From: Prosthecobacter sp.
GTDB taxonomy: Bacteria; Verrucomicrobiota; Verrucomicrobiia; Verrucomicrobiales; Verrucomicrobiaceae
Length of the DNA stretch: 64,000 nt
Assembly (NCBI GenBank): GCA_019186985.1
Contig: JABARQ010000015.1
Span: 1-64,000 of the forward strand
Reading direction: 5' to 3'
Shown here in pieces: positions 24,778 to 31,500 of the stretch (position 1 is its first letter; every line of letters begins with the position of its first letter). The position numbers were made by a program, and so were the translations under genes. The notes beneath the pieces were generated by a model that did not search any database, was not told where the DNA came from, and worked only from the letters and a program-made list of their open reading frames with translations.

Positions 24778-25720
24778 GGCCTTCCCGTTCCAGCCACAAC
24801 CTGCCCGCCTTCCGGCGCAGGTGATGTCCACCGGGCAGGTTGATCTTCGCCGGTCCGCCGGGGTGAAGCATCTCCAGGACAAGCTCGACCTCGTCAAGCC
24901 CGATCCCGGGCAGCTCCAGAACCTTGACCAGCCACTGACGCAGCAGCCTGGAGGCGACCGCTTCTGGAACCTGCGCGAGAGGCCGGAACCTCAGGGCCCG
25001 GTCAGGATCAAGGCAGTCATCCAGCCTCTGAAGCGCCAGCCCGGTCAGCGCTTCCTCATCCCGCTCCGCCTGCCTGCCCAGCCGGACGATCTGCGGCACC
25101 ACGTCACGGTCAAAGACCCGGTTGAGCATCGGCAGCACGTCGAGCCTGAGCCGGTTGCGGCGCGGCCCCCGGCTCGTGTTGCTGGAGTCCTCACGAAACC
25201 TCAGCCCGTGCTCCCGAGCATAACCATTGATGTCTGAACGCCGCCAGTTCAGCAGCGGACGGCGAAGCTCAAACGAATGCGCGCCATGCTGCAGCACGGA
25301 CGCCTCCCTCATGCCGCCCAGGCCGTTCAGTCCAGCGCCCCGGCACAGGTTCGCCAGAATGGTCTCCGCCTGATCATCCGCGTGATGGGCCAGGTAGATC
25401 CGTCCGGCGCCATGCTTCAGGGCCGCCTCCGCCAGGAACTGATGCCGAAGCCTCCGGCCCGCGGTTTCGACCGAGATCCTCTGCCGGCGCGCAAGGGCCG
25501 CCACATCCTCGCGCCCCACCTCGCAGGCAAGGCAGAGACCTGCCGCCAGCCGGCGGACAAAGGCAGCATCCTGCCCGGATTCACGGCCTCGCAGACCGTG
25601 GTTCAAATGGCAGACCACCAGCCTTTCGGAGGAGTTCCGGACCAGCCAGTGCAGCAGGACCACGGAATCCCGCCCGCCGGAAACGGCGACAAGCGAGGGC
25701 AATGGACACGAAGGCTGCAT
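24767..25720 (-). CDS. tilS: tRNA(Ile)-lysidine synthase
   Basis: The 317-residue protein has the PP-loop ATP motif SGGRDS at residues 14-19, the family segment CHLNHGLRGRES and LAHHADDQAETILANLCRGAGLNGLGGM. TilS attaches lysine to the wobble cytidine of the AUA-reading tRNA(Ile). The length matches short TilS proteins (Aquifex type) lacking the large C-terminal domain of the E. coli enzyme. The ATG at 25720 gives the normal distance to the PP-loop. It diverges from the lipid operon start (25866) and overlaps the kinase gene tail-to-tail. Confidence 0.93.
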   Translation of the reverse strand: MQPSCPLPSLVAVSGGRDSVVLLHWLVRNSSERLVVCHLNHGLRGRESGQDAAFVRRLAAGLCLACEVGREDVAALARRQRISVETAGRRLRHQFLAEAALKHGAGRIYLAHHADDQAETILANLCRGAGLNGLGGMREASVLQHGAHSFELRRPLLNWRRSDINGYAREHGLRFREDSSNTSRGPRRNRLRLDVLPMLNRVFDRDVVPQIVRLGRQAERDEEALTGLALQRLDDCLDPDRALRFRPLAQVPEAVASRLLRQWLVKVLELPGIGLDEVELVLEMLHPGGPAKINLPGGHHLRRKAGRLWLEREGLTP

Positions 25721-25865
25721 GAGACCGATGGTACACAACGCCTGCCGACAAAAAAGCTCCTGTTTCAGGGCATTTTCCCCGGAAAACCCGCCGTCCCTCC
25801 AAATGCACTGAATCCAGAACGGCACGGCGGACGAACCAAGCAGTCGTTTTTCATCCAGCACGCGA
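25721..25865. promoter_or_regulatory. Divergent control region tilS / lipid operon
   Basis: These 145 bases hold the promoters of tilS and the six-gene lipid operon. A 14-base inverted repeat, TTTTCC-CC-GGAAAA, lies at 25773-25786 and is a possible operator. On the minus strand TACCAT lies seven bases before the tilS ATG and could act as a -10 element. No other clear sigma-70 boxes were found. Confidence 0.35.
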
Positions 25866-27158
25866 ATGCCCCTTCCCCGTCTCGCCATCGTTGGTTCAGG
25901 CATCTCCGGCCTGGGCTGCGCCCACTTCCTGCACCGCAGGTTCGACATCACCGTCTTCGAGGCGGCGGACTATGTCGGCGGGCACACCAACACCGTGACG
26001 GTGACCGAGGACGGGCGCGAGCTGCCCGTCGACACGGGCTTCATGGTCTTCAACCACCACACCTACCCGTTGCTATGCCGTTTGTTCGGCGAGCTGGGCG
26101 TCGGGACGAAGCGCACGGACATGTCCTTCAGCATGTCCCACCAGGCCAGCGGCTACGAATGGAACGGAGGGGGCCTGTCCCGCGTCTTCGGCCAGCGCCG
26201 GAACCTCGTCGACCCGCGCTTCTGGCGCTTCGTCCTGCAGATCCACCGGTTCAACGGCCAGTGCATCGCAGCGATGAACGACCCGCGATTCGAGAGGATG
26301 ACCCTTGGCGAGTTCGCCCGGGCCTGCGGCTACGGCCAGGATTTCCTCGACCTCTACATCGTGCCCATGGGCAGCGCCGTCTGGTCCACGCCGCCGGACC
26401 GGATGCTGGACTTCCCGGCGCGCACGTTGATGCACTTTTGGTTCAACCATGGCTTCCTGGCGATGGACACCCGGCATCCCTGGTGGACCGTCTGCGACGG
26501 CTCGCGGCAGTATGTCCGCAGGCTGATCCCGCCCTTTGCCGACCGCATCCGGCTGAAAAGCCCGGTGGCCCGGATCGAACGGCGGGACGGCAGGGTGCTC
26601 GTGCAGCCGGTGAACGGCCCGGCGGAGGCCTTTGACCATGTCATCCTCGCCTCGCACGCACCCGCAAGCCTGCGCATGCTGGCGGACGCCACGCCCCTGG
26701 AGACGGAGGTGCTGTCAGCCTTCAACTACCAGCCGAACATGGCGGCCCTGCACACGGACGCCTCGGTCATGCCGCGCACACGACGCTGCTGGGCCTCCTG
26801 GAACTACCGGGTCGAAGCGGATGAGGCAGGCAGGATCGTGCCAAGCACCCACTACTGGATGAACAACCTTCAGGGTGTTTCCGACAAGGTGAACTATTTC
26901 GTCTCCATCAATCCTCCGGACAACCTGGACGAGTCGAAGGTGCTGCGTCGCATCGACTATGAGCACCCGCTGTTTGACCTGGCTGCGATTGACGCCCAGA
27001 AACGCCTGCCCGAGCTGCGGAGGGAGTCGGGACGAACGCGCACCCTGTTCTGCGGCGCCTGGGGACGCTACGGCTTTCACGAAGACGGCTTCATGTCCGC
27101 GGTCGAGACCTGCGGGCACCTCCTGGGCGGTGATCCCTGGACCCTGAGAAACCCCTGA
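25866..27158 (+). CDS. FAD-dependent oxidoreductase of fatty-acid modification loci
   Basis: The 430-residue protein is a flavin amine-oxidase-like enzyme. The dinucleotide-binding motif is IVGSGISGLGCAHFL (about residues 7-21), then VFEAADYVGGHTNTV. The motif VDTGFMVFNHHTYPLLCRLF is characteristic of oxidoreductases encoded beside DUF1365 and CFA-type methyltransferases. In such loci it is believed to reduce or desaturate a methylated acyl chain; in plants the same domain is fused to cyclopropane synthase. It is the first gene of a six-gene operon and overlaps or abuts the DUF1365 gene at its stop. Confidence 0.88.
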   Translation: MPLPRLAIVGSGISGLGCAHFLHRRFDITVFEAADYVGGHTNTVTVTEDGRELPVDTGFMVFNHHTYPLLCRLFGELGVGTKRTDMSFSMSHQASGYEWNGGGLSRVFGQRRNLVDPRFWRFVLQIHRFNGQCIAAMNDPRFERMTLGEFARACGYGQDFLDLYIVPMGSAVWSTPPDRMLDFPARTLMHFWFNHGFLAMDTRHPWWTVCDGSRQYVRRLIPPFADRIRLKSPVARIERRDGRVLVQPVNGPAEAFDHVILASHAPASLRMLADATPLETEVLSAFNYQPNMAALHTDASVMPRTRRCWASWNYRVEADEAGRIVPSTHYWMNNLQGVSDKVNYFVSINPPDNLDESKVLRRIDYEHPLFDLAAIDAQKRLPELRRESGRTRTLFCGAWGRYGFHEDGFMSAVETCGHLLGGDPWTLRNP

Positions 27159-27181
27159 TGCCTCCGAGGCACGCACAGACC

Positions 27182-27982
27182 ATGACCTCCTTCGAATCTT
27201 CGCTCTACGAATGTGAGGTCGTGCATGAGCGGCTGCTGCCGAGGCGGCATCGTTTCAGTTATGCCATGTTTTACCTGGACCTCTGGCTCGACGAGCTGCC
27301 CGGGCTGGACCGTGAGCTGCGCCTGTTCAGCGTGGACCGCCTCAACGTCTTCACCTTCCGGGACTCCGACCACCTCGACCTGGGGGCGGGACACCTGCGG
27401 CTGAATCTCGAAAAGTGGCTCCATGAGCAGCATGGCATCCGGCTCGCTGAAGATTCGCGAATCCGCCTCGTCACCCTGCCTCGTATCGGCGGCTACATCT
27501 TCAATCCCGCATGCTTCTACTTCATCCACGACTCCTCAGGCAGAGCCGTGCACGCCATCTGCGAGGTGACCAACACCTTTCACGAGATGAAGCCCTATCT
27601 GCTGCCGAAGGCCTCGGAAGACGGCGTTTTCGAGCATGTCCAGCCGAAGAACTTCTACGTCTCGCCCTTCTCCAATCTCGACACCCGCTTTCACTTCAGG
27701 CTGTCAGTCCCGGGGGAGCGGCTGCGACTGCACATCGACGAGCTCGAGGACGGGCGGCGCACGCTGGCAAGCTGGGTGCACGGCGTCAGAAAACCGCTCA
27801 ACGACCGCACCCTGACCCGATGCATCATTCGTTATCCTGCGCTGACGCTGCAGGTCATCCTCAAGATCCACTGGCAGGCCTTCCGCCTCTGGGCGCGTGG
27901 ATTCGGCTTCATCCGCAAAAGCGCCGGCAGACATCTGCAGACCGGCCTCTACCGGCCTCATCCCAGCCTGACTGATCCCTGA
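27182..27982 (+). CDS. DUF1365 family protein
   Basis: The 266-residue protein matches the DUF1365 pattern: LYECEVVHERLLPRRHRFSY near the start, PRIGGYIFNPACFYFIHD in the middle and KNFYVSPFSNLDTRFHF later. The function is unknown, but the family is nearly always encoded between an FAD oxidoreductase and a CFA-type methyltransferase. An alternative ATG at 27158 shares a base with the upstream stop (TGATG) and would add eight residues; the ATG at 27182 fits the family start better. Confidence 0.88.
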   Translation: MTSFESSLYECEVVHERLLPRRHRFSYAMFYLDLWLDELPGLDRELRLFSVDRLNVFTFRDSDHLDLGAGHLRLNLEKWLHEQHGIRLAEDSRIRLVTLPRIGGYIFNPACFYFIHDSSGRAVHAICEVTNTFHEMKPYLLPKASEDGVFEHVQPKNFYVSPFSNLDTRFHFRLSVPGERLRLHIDELEDGRRTLASWVHGVRKPLNDRTLTRCIIRYPALTLQVILKIHWQAFRLWARGFGFIRKSAGRHLQTGLYRPHPSLTDP

Positions 27983-27988
27983 ACCTTC

Positions 27989-29299
27989 ATGAACCCCACA
28001 GCCGTCCTGCCCTCCTCCAGCCCGCTGGAAATGACTGCTTCCTGCAACCGCTGGGCCCTGGTCGTTTCACGCCGCTGCCTGCACCGCTGGCTGGTCATGC
28101 GGACATTGCGCACCTTCAGCCGGGGACGCCTTCAGATGGACCTGCCGGGAGGTGAGCGCTTCTTCTTTGGAGACGCGACGCTCGGCCAGCCCACCGCCCA
28201 CATCCAGGTCAGGCACCCGCTATCGTTCTTCGTTCATCTGGCCCGTTATGGCGGCGTCGGGCTGGGAGAGGCCTACACGGAAGGCTGGTGGGATACGCCG
28301 GACCTGCGCGCCGTGCTCGACTGGTTCATCATCAACATCCAGTCCAGGCCGTCGTTGAAAGGCTCATCCCAGGGCTTCAAGCTCATCGGCTTCCTGCGCT
28401 GGTTGAACCGCATCCGGCATCTGATGCGGCCCAATTCACTGAAGACCAGCCGGCGCAACATTGCCGAACATTACGACCTGGGGAATGACTTCTACAAGCT
28501 CTGGCTGGATCCTTCGATGACCTATTCCGCAGCCAGGTTTACGCGGGAGGATCAGAGCCTTGAGGAGGCTCAGGCCGCCAAGTATGAGGCCTTGTGTGAG
28601 AAGCTCCGCCTCAGGCCCGAGGATCACGTGCTGGAAATCGGCTGCGGCTGGGGCGGCTTCAGCATCCACGCCGTCAAAAACCACGGCTGCCGGGTCACCG
28701 CCGTGACACTTTCGCAGGAGCAGCACCGAGAGGCGACCAGGCGTGTGAAGGAGGCCGGGCTGGAGGACCGCGTCGAGATCCGCCTGCAGGACTACCGCCA
28801 TGTCACCGGCCGGTTCGACAAGATCGCCTCCATCGAGATGCTGGAGGCTGTGGGTGAAAAGTATCTGGAGACCTACTTTGCCAAGTGCGCCGAGGTGCTG
28901 GCGCCGCACGGCATTCTCGCCGTGCAGATGATCACGGTGCCTGATCATCACTATCGCAGGCTGGCCAGGGGGGTGGACTGGATTCAAAAGCACATCTTTC
29001 CGGGGTCGCTGCTGCTGGCCGTCGGTCGTGTCAACGAAGCCATCCGAAGGACAAGCGCCCTGTCCCCGATGGCCCTTGAAGACCTGGGAGGCGACTACGC
29101 CCGGACGTTGAGCGAATGGCATGTCAACTTCAACGCCAGGCTTCGGGAAGTGCGTGAGCTGGGCTTTGACGAGCCCTTCATCCGCAAGTGGAGCTATTAC
29201 CTCAAGTACTGCGAATCCGCCTTTGCCATGCGTAACATCAGCGTCGTCCAGGCATCCTGGGCCCGGTACAGCCACCAGGTGATGCAGCCTGCCGCCTGA
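27989..29299 (+). CDS. CFA-type fatty-acyl-phospholipid methyltransferase (first copy)
   Basis: The 436-residue cytoplasmic or membrane-associated enzyme has an N-terminal lipid-binding region (FFFGDATLGQPTAHIQV) and an SAM domain with VLEIGCGWGGFSIHAV (about residues 214-229). The conserved cysteine near the end is kept (YYLKYCESAF). Three side chains that hold bicarbonate in E. coli Cfa appear changed: YSC is YSA, the LLH histidine is Gln (VQMIT), and the WY tyrosine is His (WHVNF). It may therefore methylate or methylenate acyl chains rather than form a cyclopropane ring. It starts six bases after the DUF1365 gene. Confidence 0.9.
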   Translation: MNPTAVLPSSSPLEMTASCNRWALVVSRRCLHRWLVMRTLRTFSRGRLQMDLPGGERFFFGDATLGQPTAHIQVRHPLSFFVHLARYGGVGLGEAYTEGWWDTPDLRAVLDWFIINIQSRPSLKGSSQGFKLIGFLRWLNRIRHLMRPNSLKTSRRNIAEHYDLGNDFYKLWLDPSMTYSAARFTREDQSLEEAQAAKYEALCEKLRLRPEDHVLEIGCGWGGFSIHAVKNHGCRVTAVTLSQEQHREATRRVKEAGLEDRVEIRLQDYRHVTGRFDKIASIEMLEAVGEKYLETYFAKCAEVLAPHGILAVQMITVPDHHYRRLARGVDWIQKHIFPGSLLLAVGRVNEAIRRTSALSPMALEDLGGDYARTLSEWHVNFNARLREVRELGFDEPFIRKWSYYLKYCESAFAMRNISVVQASWARYSHQVMQPAA

Positions 29300-29330
29300 C
29301 CGGTCCGAAAGCGTCCCAACAGCACACGGC

Positions 29331-29669
29331 ATGATCCTCATCCTGCGCCTTTTCTTCATGCTCATGCTTGCCTCCATGATCGGAGTCACCGGCTGGGCCA
29401 GCCTGGAGTGCGCCTTGTGGAGGATTCCGGGGGAAGTGGCCTCGAATCCCTGGTTCATCGCCACGCTTGCAGACACCTGCTGGGCCTTCCTGACCTTCTA
29501 TGCCTGGCTCGCCTACAAGGAGACATCGTGGAGATCGCGGCTTGCCTGGCTGCTCGCGATCCTGGCCCTCGGAACCATGGCTGTCGCCGCCTACATGCTG
29601 CACCAGTTGTTCCAGGTGAATGCGAGCGCCGGCGTTGAGGAGGTTCTTCTCCGGAGGAAAAACTCGTGA
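29331..29669 (+). CDS. DUF1475 family small membrane protein
   Basis: The 112-residue protein has three hydrophobic helices. The block GVTGWASLECALWRIPGEVA, NPWFIATLADTCWAF and LTFYAWLAYKE matches the DUF1475 family, which was first described from plants. The function is unknown. Its place inside a lipid operon, overlapping the DUF1295 gene start by four bases, suggests a role at the membrane with that enzyme. Confidence 0.78.
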   Translation: MILILRLFFMLMLASMIGVTGWASLECALWRIPGEVASNPWFIATLADTCWAFLTFYAWLAYKETSWRSRLAWLLAILALGTMAVAAYMLHQLFQVNASAGVEEVLLRRKNS

Positions 29670-30439
29670 GCCTGCTGATTTCCGCCCTGATCCTGGTCCT
29701 CATGTTTTTTGCGACCTGGCGGTTCAGCGTCCGCTCCGGCAACTATTCCTGGGTGGATGTCACCTGGGCGCTCAGCTTCACGCCCGCCGTGCTCTGCCAT
29801 GCCTGGCCCGCAGACGGCTGGGCGCCGCGGCGCTTCGCCATCGCCCTGATGATGTCCGCCTGGAGCCTGCGCCTTGGCCTGCATCTGTGGCGGCGGGTCT
29901 CCCGTCACCATCCGCATGAAGATGCGCGCTATGCCGTGCTGCGGAAGCGATGGAAGGCGGATGTTCCAAGGGCCTTTCTGGTTTTCTTCCTGGCCCAGGC
30001 ATTCCTTGTCTGGCTGCTGCTGCTGCCGGCCCACCTGATCGCCAACCATGCAGGCAGCGGCTTCAGCCTGACGGAACTCGCAGGCCTGGCCGTGTGGTTC
30101 TTGGCGCTCATCGGTGAAGCCATCGCCGACCGGCAGCTTTCCTCCTTCAGCCGTGAGCCAGGCTCCACGAACCAAGTTTGCCGCAGGGGGCTGTGGCGCT
30201 GGAGCCGGCATCCCAACTACTTTTTCCAGTCACTGCTTTGGTGGGGGCTTTTCCTGATGGCGCTTCCGGCCCCCTGGGGCTGGGCCTCCATCGCCGCCCC
30301 GCTGGCCATGCTGCACTTCCTGCTGAACGTCACCGGCATTCCCCTGACGGAAAGGCTGTCCGTGGAAAAGCGTGGCGACGCCTACCGGGACTATCAGCGC
30401 ACCACGAGCGCTTTTGTGCCCTGGTTTCCCAAGAGTTGA
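29666..30439 (+). CDS. DUF1295 family membrane reductase-like protein
   Basis: The 257-residue integral membrane protein has about six helices. The C-terminal motif [20 protein letters not shown] and the ending ...[20 protein letters not shown] are the DUF1295/steroid 5-alpha-reductase-like and isoprenylcysteine methyltransferase-like signature. The start is GTG, overlapping the DUF1475 stop (GTGA). Relatives use NADPH or SAM on lipids. In this operon a reduction of an unsaturated or methylene-bearing acyl chain is plausible but not shown. Confidence 0.88.
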
Positions 30440-30459
30440 ACTCAACACATCCATGCCTC

Positions 30460-31500
30460 ATGCCTGACATCAACGCACTCCTCGCCAGGGACATCCTGCC
30501 TGACTTCCTGATCCGTATCGGCATCCGTCGGAGGCTGGCCTCGGTGCTGCGCAAGCACCGGCGGCCGGACATTGAAACGCAGCAGGCGGCCTTGATGCAG
30601 CATGTGCACGGTCTGAAGGCCATGCCGGTCGCCATCGCCACCCAGGAGGCGAACGAGCAGCACTACGAGGTGCCCACACGTTTCTACCAGCTCTGCCTGG
30701 GGAAGCACCTGAAGTACAGCAGCGGCTGGTGGGACAAGGACGCGGAGACCCTGGACAAGTCGGAGGCGGCGATGCTGCGCCTGACCTGTGAAAGGGCGCA
30801 GATTGCGGACGGCCAGCGGATTCTGGAGCTTGGCTGCGGATGGGGATCCCTGTCGCTTTGGATGGCCGAGCATTATCCGCAGGCCAGGATCACCAGTGTT
30901 TCCAATTCCCGAACCCAGAAGCAGCACATCGACGCCGAGGCAGCACGAAGGGGGGTGTCAAACCTCGAGGTCATCACGGCCAACATGATTGAGTTCGAAG
31001 GCGTCGGCGAGGCCGTCTTCGACCGCTGCGTCTCGGTGGAGATGTTTGAGCACATGAAGAACTACCAGGAGTTGCTGCGCCGGGTTGCCCGCTGGCTGAA
31101 GCCCGGGGGCAGGCTGTTCGTGCACATCTTCACACACCGCGAACTGGCCTATCATTTTGAGGCGACCGGCGCATCCGACTGGATGGCCAGGTACTTTTTC
31201 ACGGGCGGCCAGATGCCGAGCGACGACCTGCTGCTGCATTTCCAGGACGACCTCAGGATCGAGGACCACTGGTGTGTCAGCGGGCTTCACTACAGCCGCA
31301 CGTCGGAGGCATGGCTGCGCAACATGGACGCCCACAAGGACGAGATCATGGCGCTGTTCCGCGAAACCTACGGCACGGATCAGGCCGTGAAATGGTGGAG
31401 CTACTGGCGCATCTTCTACATGGCCTGCGCCGAGCTCTGGGGATACAGGAATGGCGAGGAGTGGATCGTCAGCCACTACCGCTTCAGCAGGCCGGCATGA
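30460..31500 (+). CDS. CFA-family SAM methyltransferase (second, shorter copy)
   Basis: The 346-residue protein belongs to the cyclopropane synthase superfamily but lacks the large N-terminal lipid domain of the first copy. SAM motif: [20 protein letters not shown]. Conserved family parts are [29 protein letters not shown] and the C-terminal cysteine in YMACAELWG. It keeps the histidine (LFVHIFTH) that is replaced in the first copy, but has YSSGWW instead of YSC. It resembles the branch containing plant coclaurine N-methyltransferase-like proteins, so the acceptor might be an amine head group instead of an acyl chain. It is the last gene of the operon. Confidence 0.85.

What the first reader, a model, noticed from the sequence alone, without database searches (positions are those of the whole stretch)
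25866..31500. Six-gene lipid operon with two different CFA-type methyltransferases
FAD oxidoreductase, DUF1365, CFA, DUF1475, DUF1295 and a second CFA-like enzyme are packed with overlaps or small gaps. The first three are a known module of bacterial fatty-acid modification loci, some induced by singlet oxygen. Having DUF1475, DUF1295 and a second divergent methyltransferase in the same unit suggests a longer pathway producing a branched, cyclopropane or furan-like acyl chain, or modifying both chain and head group.
Basis: partly seen in the sequence, partly recalled or inferred. Interest (0 to 1): 0.7.

Follow-up and report, generated by a model that had tools for sequence, protein, structure and literature searches.

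The report
Furan fatty acid gene cluster, Verrucomicrobiota
Six neighbouring genes in a Verrucomicrobiota bacterium look like a complete kit for making furan fatty acids, which are antioxidant membrane lipids, and two of them are uncharacterised genes that travel with this pathway and so become candidates for missing parts of it, possibly in plants too.

Summary
The six genes are real and co-directional, with overlaps or short gaps. The best reading is a dimethyl-furan-fatty-acid operon. Genes 1-3 match UfaD (FAD desaturase), UfaO (DUF1365 oxygenase) and UfaM (methyltransferase) of Rhodobacter/Rhodopseudomonas. The "second CFA" belongs with FufM, which adds the ring's second methyl group; it is far closer to plant coclaurine N-methyltransferase (293 bits) than to CFA synthase (99 bits). 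The "first CFA" lacks two bicarbonate ligands of CFA synthase; 94 of 94 aligned sequences of its type carry Gln for His266.

In 240 phylum genomes, DUF1295 occurs in 49, of which 48 carry DUF1365; DUF1475 occurs in 19, all with FufM, and in none of 197 without FufM. Of 80 DUF1475 loci fetched from named contigs, 44 exceed 17 kb; 42 of those hold DUF1295 and 40 FufM. The usual order is desaturase-UfaD-UfaO-UfaM-DUF1475-(DUF2062)-DUF1295-FufM.

The core pathway is published. New here are the DUF1475 and DUF1295 association, the residue signatures, and alkaloid N-methyltransferases nesting among FufM. DUF1295 models as a sterol-reductase/ICMT fold; its reaction and DUF1475's are unknown. No lipid was measured.

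The parts
25866..27158 (+). UfaD-like FAD oxidoreductase, 430 aa: predicted desaturase of the methylated acyl chain
   Evidence: Pfam Amino_oxidase; best solved relative LkcE amine oxidase, 118 bits; found near UfaO in most loci examined
27158..27982 (+). UfaO-like DUF1365 protein, 274 aa: predicted O2-dependent furan-forming oxygenase
   Evidence: DUF1365 231 bits; natural UfaO-UfaM fusions in 4 relatives (one of them checked with Pfam)
27989..29299 (+). UfaM-like methyltransferase, 436 aa: predicted first acyl-chain methylation, no cyclopropane expected
   Evidence: CMAS; Ala for C139 and Gln for H266 of E. coli Cfa, E239/I268/Y317 kept
29331..29669 (+). DUF1475 membrane protein, 112 aa, predicted small helical bundle; accessory, function unknown
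   Evidence: Pfam DUF1475 40 bits; model pLDDT 89.3, main helices 2-26, 40-63, 67-80, 82-94; in 240 genomes found only with FufM, 19 of 19
29666..30439 (+). DUF1295 membrane protein, 257 aa, sterol-reductase/ICMT fold; accessory, predicted NADPH-type reductase
   Evidence: DUF1295 217 bits, Steroid_dh 24.4 bits over its cut-off of 22.6; model pLDDT 93.8; fold matches 4quv Z 15.2, 7c83 Z 14.8, ICMT Z 12.3
30460..31500 (+). FufM-like methyltransferase, 346 aa: predicted second methylation, on the furan ring
   Evidence: Coclaurine N-methyltransferase 6gkv 292.6 bits against Cfa 6bqc 99.1; tree; start ATG 30460
25721..25865. Stretch before gene 1, facing the start of a divergent tilS-like gene on the - strand (name from reading the frame; its start near 25720 is inferred); the promoter is expected here
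   Evidence: Sequence read; no TGATC in 25691-25880 on the + strand (that this is part of the ECF11 promoter element is recalled)

Best explanation
The operon encodes a dimethyl furan fatty acid pathway that works on phospholipid acyl chains. UfaM methylates a mono-unsaturated chain; UfaD adds a second, conjugated double bond; UfaO inserts oxygen from O2 and closes the furan ring; FufM methylates the ring a second time. DUF1295 and DUF1475 are membrane accessories of this pathway. DUF1295 is most likely an NADPH-dependent reductase of the sterol-reductase type acting on a pathway lipid; DUF1475 is a small helical membrane protein that may hold or hand over the lipid. SHOWN here: the genes, their relatives, their co-occurrence and residue signatures. 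INFERRED: every enzymatic step in this organism, carried over from alphaproteobacteria. GUESSED: the roles of DUF1295 and DUF1475. The stated confidence is for the core four-enzyme pathway, not for these two roles.
For: The pathway UfaM-UfaD-UfaO-FufM was established biochemically in R. sphaeroides and R. palustris (PMC7380195, abstract, sections 4, 8, 9 and passages). Gene 6 groups with FufM-type sequences and plant CNMT, not with Cfa (split supported 100/100). Gene 3 carries E239-A240-Q266, as do 94 of 94 aligned UfaM-type sequences (window included); 112 of 112 FufM-type sequences keep E239-H240-H266 and have F268 (the unnamed-genome and named-contig sets may share species). In 240 genomes: FufM 43, all with DUF1365; DUF1295 49, 48 with DUF1365; DUF1475 19, all with FufM. 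In the 80 DUF1475 loci kept, DUF1295 is seen in 73, UfaM 68, FufM 63, UfaO 62, UfaD 55, many loci being cut short; in the 44 longer than 17 kb: 42, 40, 40, 40, 36. In 6 of 6 plasmid records opened, DUF1295 sits directly before the FufM-type gene, and UfaD and UfaO are close by. An acyl desaturase, a likely source of the substrate, is in 29 of the 44; in the window's genome a desaturase of that type lies elsewhere (C14, 351 bits). The genome has no further strong CFA-type gene; a third match over the cut-off has 30 bits.
Against: No lipid data: two searches for papers joining the phylum with furan or 11-methyl acids gave nothing on point (judged by title and abstract start). The R. sphaeroides and R. 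palustris protein sequences were not held, so orthology to them is by family, signature and neighbourhood only. No ChrR anti-sigma was found in the own genome and no TGATC upstream, so singlet-oxygen control is not shown. DUF1295 is not needed for the core steps elsewhere: UfaM alone gives the methylated product in E. coli (PMC12089945, passages) and FufM alone works in vitro. 6 of 54 DUF1365 genomes lack DUF1295 and 24 of 43 FufM genomes lack DUF1475. Around the 43 FufM genes the partners are not always close: DUF1295 in the fetched stretch in 31, UfaO 33, UfaD 32, UfaM 24, DUF1475 18 (some contigs end nearby).
Confidence: 0.85

Rival explanations
1. The pathway stops short of furan: UfaM and DUF1295 (as a reductase) make a saturated methyl-branched acyl chain, and the other genes make a minor product.
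For: In eight genomes the pathway is split into FufM-UfaD-UfaO and (desaturase)-DUF1295-UfaM, so DUF1295 can pair with the first methyltransferase. Its fold is that of C=C reductases.
Against: DUF1365 and FufM are mostly present with it: 48 of 49 and 41 of 49 genomes; a branched chain would need neither.
Confidence: 0.1
2. The two methyltransferases are both cyclopropane synthases with different substrates.
For: Both match Pfam CMAS, and cyclic acids were also detected on ufaM overexpression in E. coli, which has its own cfa and had them in the control too (PMC12089945, passages).
Against: Gene 3 lacks the C139 and H266 ligands. Gene 6 is far from Cfa and close to N-methyltransferases.
Confidence: 0.04
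3. DUF1295 is a SAM-dependent membrane methyltransferase (ICMT/PEMT-like) acting on a lipid, perhaps the head group, rather than a reductase.
For: ICMT structures match at Z 12.0-12.3; Pfam PEMT and ICMT give weak matches, below cut-off; in the profile search of the PDB, ICMT 4a2n scores E = 0.068, ahead of the reductase.
Against: Reductases rank higher by fold (15.2, 14.8, 13.6), and Pfam Steroid_dh passes its cut-off (24.4 against 22.6). An ungapped 68-column match to human 5-alpha-reductase 2 aligns D, N and E, but only at E = 0.11, and the window's own residue at the E is Q.
Confidence: 0.25
4. Gene 6 has left lipids and N-methylates a small molecule, like its plant relatives.
For: Closest solved structures are alkaloid N-methyltransferases.
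Against: Its position-266 residue is His as in Cfa, where the five N-methyltransferase alignments printed (two are variants of one protein) show Glu; it sits in one gene row with the furan genes in its relatives.
Confidence: 0.05

Closest known systems
Furan fatty acid pathway of Rhodobacter sphaeroides and Rhodopseudomonas palustris (UfaM, UfaD, UfaO, FufM)
   Same: All four enzyme types of the R. palustris pathway, here in one operon
   Different: In those hosts the genes are in two places by locus number (RSP2144 and RSP1090-1091; RPA2569-2571 and RPA0924, PMC7380195). Here DUF1475 and DUF1295 lie inside the operon (what RPA0923, next to fufM, encodes I could not find out), and no ChrR was found in the genome.
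Acinetobacter piscicola plasmid pYH12207-1 cluster (L027)
   Same: Desaturase-FAD-DUF1365-CFA-DUF1295-FufM type in the same order as the common Verrucomicrobiota operon
   Different: No DUF1475; a sensor kinase follows
Arabidopsis AtUFAMD1, AtUFAO1, AtFUFM1/LIME1 on lipid droplets
   Same: Same enzyme set, proposed by homology (PMC10940516, passages)
   Different: UfaM and UfaD are one protein in the plant; the plant DUF1475 family may be a doubled version of the bacterial unit, inferred from bacterial proteins matching either half of the Pfam model
Chlamydomonas SAK1-dependent singlet-oxygen genes
   Same: CFA1, CFA2 (also named as coclaurine N-methyltransferase), DUF1365 and DUF1295 are induced together (PMC4067076, passages)
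   Different: Regulated genes of an alga, not an operon; no furan product in the passages seen
Coclaurine and pavine N-methyltransferases
   Same: Nearest solved structures to gene 6
   Different: They act on alkaloid nitrogen (recalled); Glu for His at position 266

Membership tests
Furan fatty acid pathway | UfaM-type methyltransferase | tested here: met
   E239-A240-Q266 signature in 94 of 94 aligned sequences, including 4 proteobacterial ones near UfaD/UfaO; direct comparison with RSP2144 not possible
Furan fatty acid pathway | UfaD-type FAD protein | tested here: met
   Amino_oxidase family and place beside DUF1365; RSP1091 itself not compared
Furan fatty acid pathway | UfaO, a DUF1365 protein | tested here: met
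   231 bits
Furan fatty acid pathway | FufM for the dimethyl product | tested here: met
   FufM/CNMT group; that this group holds FufM rests on PMC10940516, where FufM is 38% identical to AT4G33110, and on neighbourhood; RPA0924 sequence not held
Furan fatty acid pathway | Furan acyl chains in the phospholipids | not testable with these tools
   Needs lipid mass spectrometry
ECF11/ChrR singlet-oxygen regulon | RpoE-ChrR pair in the genome | tested here: not met
   No TIGR02451 match in a 96% complete genome; furan genes are part of the core regulon where it exists (PMC6852236, passages)
Cyclopropane fatty acid synthase (gene 3) | Bicarbonate ligands C139, E239, H266, I268, Y317 (recalled) | tested here: not met
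   C139 is Ala, H266 is Gln in the window protein
Cyclopropane fatty acid synthase (gene 6) | Same ligands and closest to Cfa | tested here: not met
   C139 Ser, I268 Phe, H266 kept; 99 bits against 293 for CNMT
Sterol/steroid 5-alpha reductases (DUF1295) | Fold and NADPH-binding residues | tested here: inconclusive
   Fold Z 13.6-15.2, but no Foldseek E-value under 0.001; Steroid_dh just over cut-off; residue match only at E = 0.11
ICMT-type methyltransferases (DUF1295) | Fold and SAM-binding residues | tested here: inconclusive
   Z 12.0-12.3; E = 0.068 for 4a2n
Plant DUF1475 family | Match over the curated score | tested here: met
   40.3 bits, cut-off 22.3; covers one half of the model

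The most novel reading that the evidence does not exclude
DUF1295, helped by DUF1475, makes the furan lipid a reusable singlet-oxygen quencher: it reduces the ene-dione left when a furan chain takes up singlet oxygen to a 1,4-diketone, which can close again to a furan. The same pair would serve the furan lipids of plant lipid droplets.
Probability: 0.1. Interest if true: 0.85.

Novelty: new variant of a known kind. Interest (0 to 1): 0.5.

Why it matters
Furan fatty acids occur in plants, fish and microbes, and the enzymes that make them were worked out in two alphaproteobacteria (PMC7380195). This operon gives one compact gene set for the dimethyl form in another phylum, names two uncharacterised families as pathway partners, and offers residue signatures to tell UfaM, FufM and Cfa apart in annotation. 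It also suggests that alkaloid N-methyltransferases of plants came from a furan-lipid methyltransferase lineage, which is directly testable.

Tried and rejected
Rejected: cyclopropane synthesis as the main function of either enzyme. Rejected: chance neighbourhood. Not found: ChrR in this genome. Rejected: the 30178 start of gene 6.

Led nowhere: DUF1475 had two Foldseek matches, both at E 9.8, and one of Z 2.3 on the second look; a missing match is not evidence of a new fold. P0005 alone has no PDB sequence match. DUF1475 has no match in plasmid records. The own-genome DUF2062 gene at C9 is not the operon type (8.6 bits).

Rows dropped before counts: 8 of 51 genomes whose best match to gene 6 was 5.7e-26 to 6.0e-23 (taken as UfaM/Cfa paralogues; the 43 kept have E of 1.0e-100 or less); genome G156 (below cut-off, two stops inside, not found by the better profile). 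G217 was missed, found and confirmed. DUF1295 and DUF1365 were counted at E of 1e-15 or less. Of 334 DUF1475 relatives in named genomes only the best 80 were kept by the tool, so other phyla cannot be judged. Of 316 plasmid records 40 were listed and 6 opened. The score limits of my own profiles were set by me.
Full report
WHAT IS THERE. Six genes on the + strand, 25866-31500, are packed with overlaps of 1 and 4 bases and gaps of 6, 31 and 20 bases. Pfam names them Amino_oxidase, DUF1365, CMAS, DUF1475, DUF1295 and CMAS. Gene 6 starts at ATG 30460. The two CMAS genes are the only strong ones in the 5.9 Mb, 96% complete genome; a third match over the cut-off has only 30 bits. That the window is from Verrucomicrobiota is inferred: the best-matching named DUF1475 loci are Prosthecobacter, Brevifollis and other Verrucomicrobiaceae.

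KNOWN CHEMISTRY. In R. sphaeroides, UfaM methylates cis-vaccenate chains, UfaD makes the conjugated methyl-diene, UfaO (DUF1365) inserts O2-derived oxygen to give the monomethyl furan, and in R. palustris FufM adds the second methyl group (PMC7380195: abstract, sections 4, 8 and 9 and passages). RSP1087-1089 were not needed. The paper lists a deletion of RPA0923, the neighbour of fufM by number, but the passages I saw give no result for it, and I could not identify that gene.

THE FIRST METHYLTRANSFERASE IS OF UfaM TYPE. Against E. coli Cfa, gene 3 has Ala at C139 and Gln at H266, with E239, I268 and Y317 kept. Of 94 aligned sequences (the window's included; unnamed-genome and named-contig sets may share species), 94 have Gln at 266 and Ala at 240; position 139 is Ser 41, Ala 38, Gly 8, Cys 7. 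That C139, E239, H266, I268 and Y317 hold the bicarbonate of Cfa is recalled. Losing part of the site that takes the last proton in ring closure fits an enzyme that leaves a double bond instead. I did not have the R. sphaeroides UfaM sequence as a positive control; four proteobacterial sequences near UfaD and UfaO (L026, L027, L028, L031) stand in for it.

THE SECOND METHYLTRANSFERASE IS OF FufM TYPE. Gene 6 matches coclaurine N-methyltransferase 6gkv at 292.6 bits, pavine N-methyltransferase at 251.8, and Cfa 6bqc at 99.1. The link from this group to FufM rests on a published 38% identity of FufM to AT4G33110 (PMC10940516, passages) and on gene neighbours; I had no FufM sequence of R. palustris. 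In a tree of 49 FufM-type, 28 UfaM-type, E. coli Cfa and two plant N-methyltransferases, FufM plus the N-methyltransferases are split from UfaM plus Cfa with 100/100 support. The N-methyltransferases lie inside the FufM group (FufM alone is one side of a branch in 0% of bootstrap trees); their exact partner is weakly supported (82/78) on a long branch, and the root is by midpoint. Position 266 is His in 112 of 112 FufM-type sequences and Glu in the five N-methyltransferase alignments printed, two of which are variants of one protein.

CO-OCCURRENCE. In 240 genomes of the phylum: DUF1365 in 54, DUF1295 in 49, FufM in 43, DUF1475 in 19. FufM with DUF1365 43 of 43; DUF1295 with DUF1365 48 of 49; DUF1475 with FufM 19 of 19 and with none of the 197 genomes lacking FufM. 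Collapsed to 131 genera (both, first only, second only, neither) the tables stay one-sided: 36/0/3/92 for DUF1295 and DUF1365, 14/0/16/101 for DUF1475 and FufM. These tests do not correct for descent. Against: 6 of 54 DUF1365 genomes lack DUF1295, 24 of 43 FufM genomes lack DUF1475.

NEIGHBOURHOOD. Around the 43 FufM genes, in stretches of up to 19.5 kb, DUF1475 is present in 18 (in G085 it is on another contig), DUF1295 in 31, UfaO in 33, UfaD in 32 and UfaM in 24; some contigs end nearby. In G047 DUF1475, DUF1295 and FufM are together while the other three are elsewhere. The scan of named genomes with a DUF1475 profile found 334 relatives; the best 80 were kept. Among the 80: DUF1295 73, UfaM 68, FufM 63, UfaO 62, UfaD 55, DUF2062-like 52, desaturase 39, TPR protein 34. 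Among the 44 over 17 kb: DUF1295 42, UfaM 40, UfaO 40, FufM 40, UfaD 36, desaturase 29, DUF2062 29, TPR 22 (one member each of DUF2062, desaturase and TPR checked in Pfam). The commonest order, 17 of 80, is desaturase-UfaD-UfaO-UfaM-DUF1475-DUF2062-DUF1295-FufM-TPR. The window has no desaturase directly upstream and no room for DUF2062 between its overlapping genes 4 and 5; an operon-type desaturase is on contig C14. In eight genomes the pathway is split into FufM-UfaD-UfaO and DUF1295-UfaM, in two of them with a desaturase before DUF1295 (G001, G015, G023, G093, G157, G186, G189, G204). Four relatives have UfaO fused to UfaM (L168, L169, L173, L178). In six plasmid records of Burkholderia, Acinetobacter, Caballeronia, Rhizobium, Shinella and Mesorhizobium, DUF1295 directly precedes the FufM-type gene in 6 of 6, a sigma and anti-sigma pair is near in 5 of 6, and none is annotated with DUF1475 (a tblastn for DUF1475 in plasmids was empty). 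A full UfaM is in 4 of the 6 (L029 has a fragment, L030 none).

DUF1295. The model (pLDDT 93.8) matches delta-14 sterol reductase 4quv (Z 15.2, rmsd 3.7, 233 aligned), PbSRD5A 7c83 (14.8, 3.0, 189), SRD5A2 7bw1 (13.6, 3.4, 190) and ICMT (12.0-12.3). The tool warns that for helical bundles Z under about 13 may be only a common arrangement, and no Foldseek E-value was under 0.001. Pfam Steroid_dh passes its cut-off (24.4 against 22.6), PEMT and ICMT do not. A profile search aligned D, N and E of SRD5A2 without gaps over 68 columns but at E = 0.11, and ICMT at 0.068; that D and N bind NADPH in SRD5A2 is recalled. So the cofactor is undecided; I lean to NADPH. DUF1295 is not required for the known steps, and its place next to UfaM in split loci speaks somewhat against an end-of-pathway role.

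DUF1475. The model is a confident small helical bundle (pLDDT 89.3; main helices 2-26, 40-63, 67-80, 82-94) with no useful match in the PDB search; that it sits in the membrane is read from its hydrophobic helices. P40, W41, A44, D48, F53, F56, W73, G81 and Y88 are invariant in both alignments; the window copy has DTCW and GTM where the consensus has DTYW and GNI. Bacterial proteins match either half of the Pfam model, which suggests that the plant family is the same unit doubled. In the library only two papers mention DUF1475, both plant infection transcriptomes by title (passages of one read).

NOVEL READING. That singlet oxygen turns furans into ene-diones, that 5-alpha-reductases reduce enones, and that 1,4-diketones can close to furans is recalled chemistry. 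Together with the DUF1295 fold it suggests furan recycling. Nothing here tests it; I give it 0.1.

IN PRINT. The core pathway, and the proposal that it spreads to other bacteria and plants, are published (PMC7380195, PMC10940516). Full-text searches found no paper with both DUF1295 and furan, none with coclaurine N-methyltransferase and furan fatty acid, and none of the five with Verrucomicrob- and furan fatty acid is, by title and abstract start, about synthesis in the phylum. The library holds only open-licence papers, so this is not proof of absence.

Noticed in passing
35580-59663, - strand: Open frame of 8027 aa rich in Ser, Thr, Gly and Asn repeats; by eye it looks like a giant repetitive surface or autotransporter-type protein.
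   Followed up: no
L168, L169, L173, L178: UfaO (DUF1365) and UfaM fused in one open frame of 653-1068 aa, a different fusion from the plant UfaD-UfaM protein.
   Followed up: partly
L027 (the only Acinetobacter record opened; more are listed): A plasmid typed as mobilizable carries a full desaturase-UfaD-UfaO-UfaM-DUF1295-FufM set with photolyase and lipocalin genes nearby, so the pathway may be mobile.
   Followed up: partly
L029-L031 and PMC4067076 Table 5 (passages): The bacterial sigma/ChrR clusters also hold DUF2177, and L031 a fasciclin-domain and a heme-binding protein; DUF2177, FAS2 and SOUL heme-binding genes are in the Chlamydomonas SAK1 singlet-oxygen list too.
   Followed up: no
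L032-L074 and the window: Recurrent neighbours of FufM in other Verrucomicrobiota: acyl desaturase (15 loci), DUF2062 (13), chalcone-isomerase-like (10), TPR (9), SnoaL-like (9), ECF sigma (6); also one that reads like glutathione peroxidase (4, not checked in Pfam).
   Followed up: partly
L118, L107, L113: DUF1475 operon in contigs titled Blastocatellia, Proteobacteria and 'bacterium'; either transfer or mislabelled bins.
   Followed up: no
L037: In G140 about 12.8 kb with two very large frames separates DUF1475 from DUF1295-FufM.
   Followed up: no
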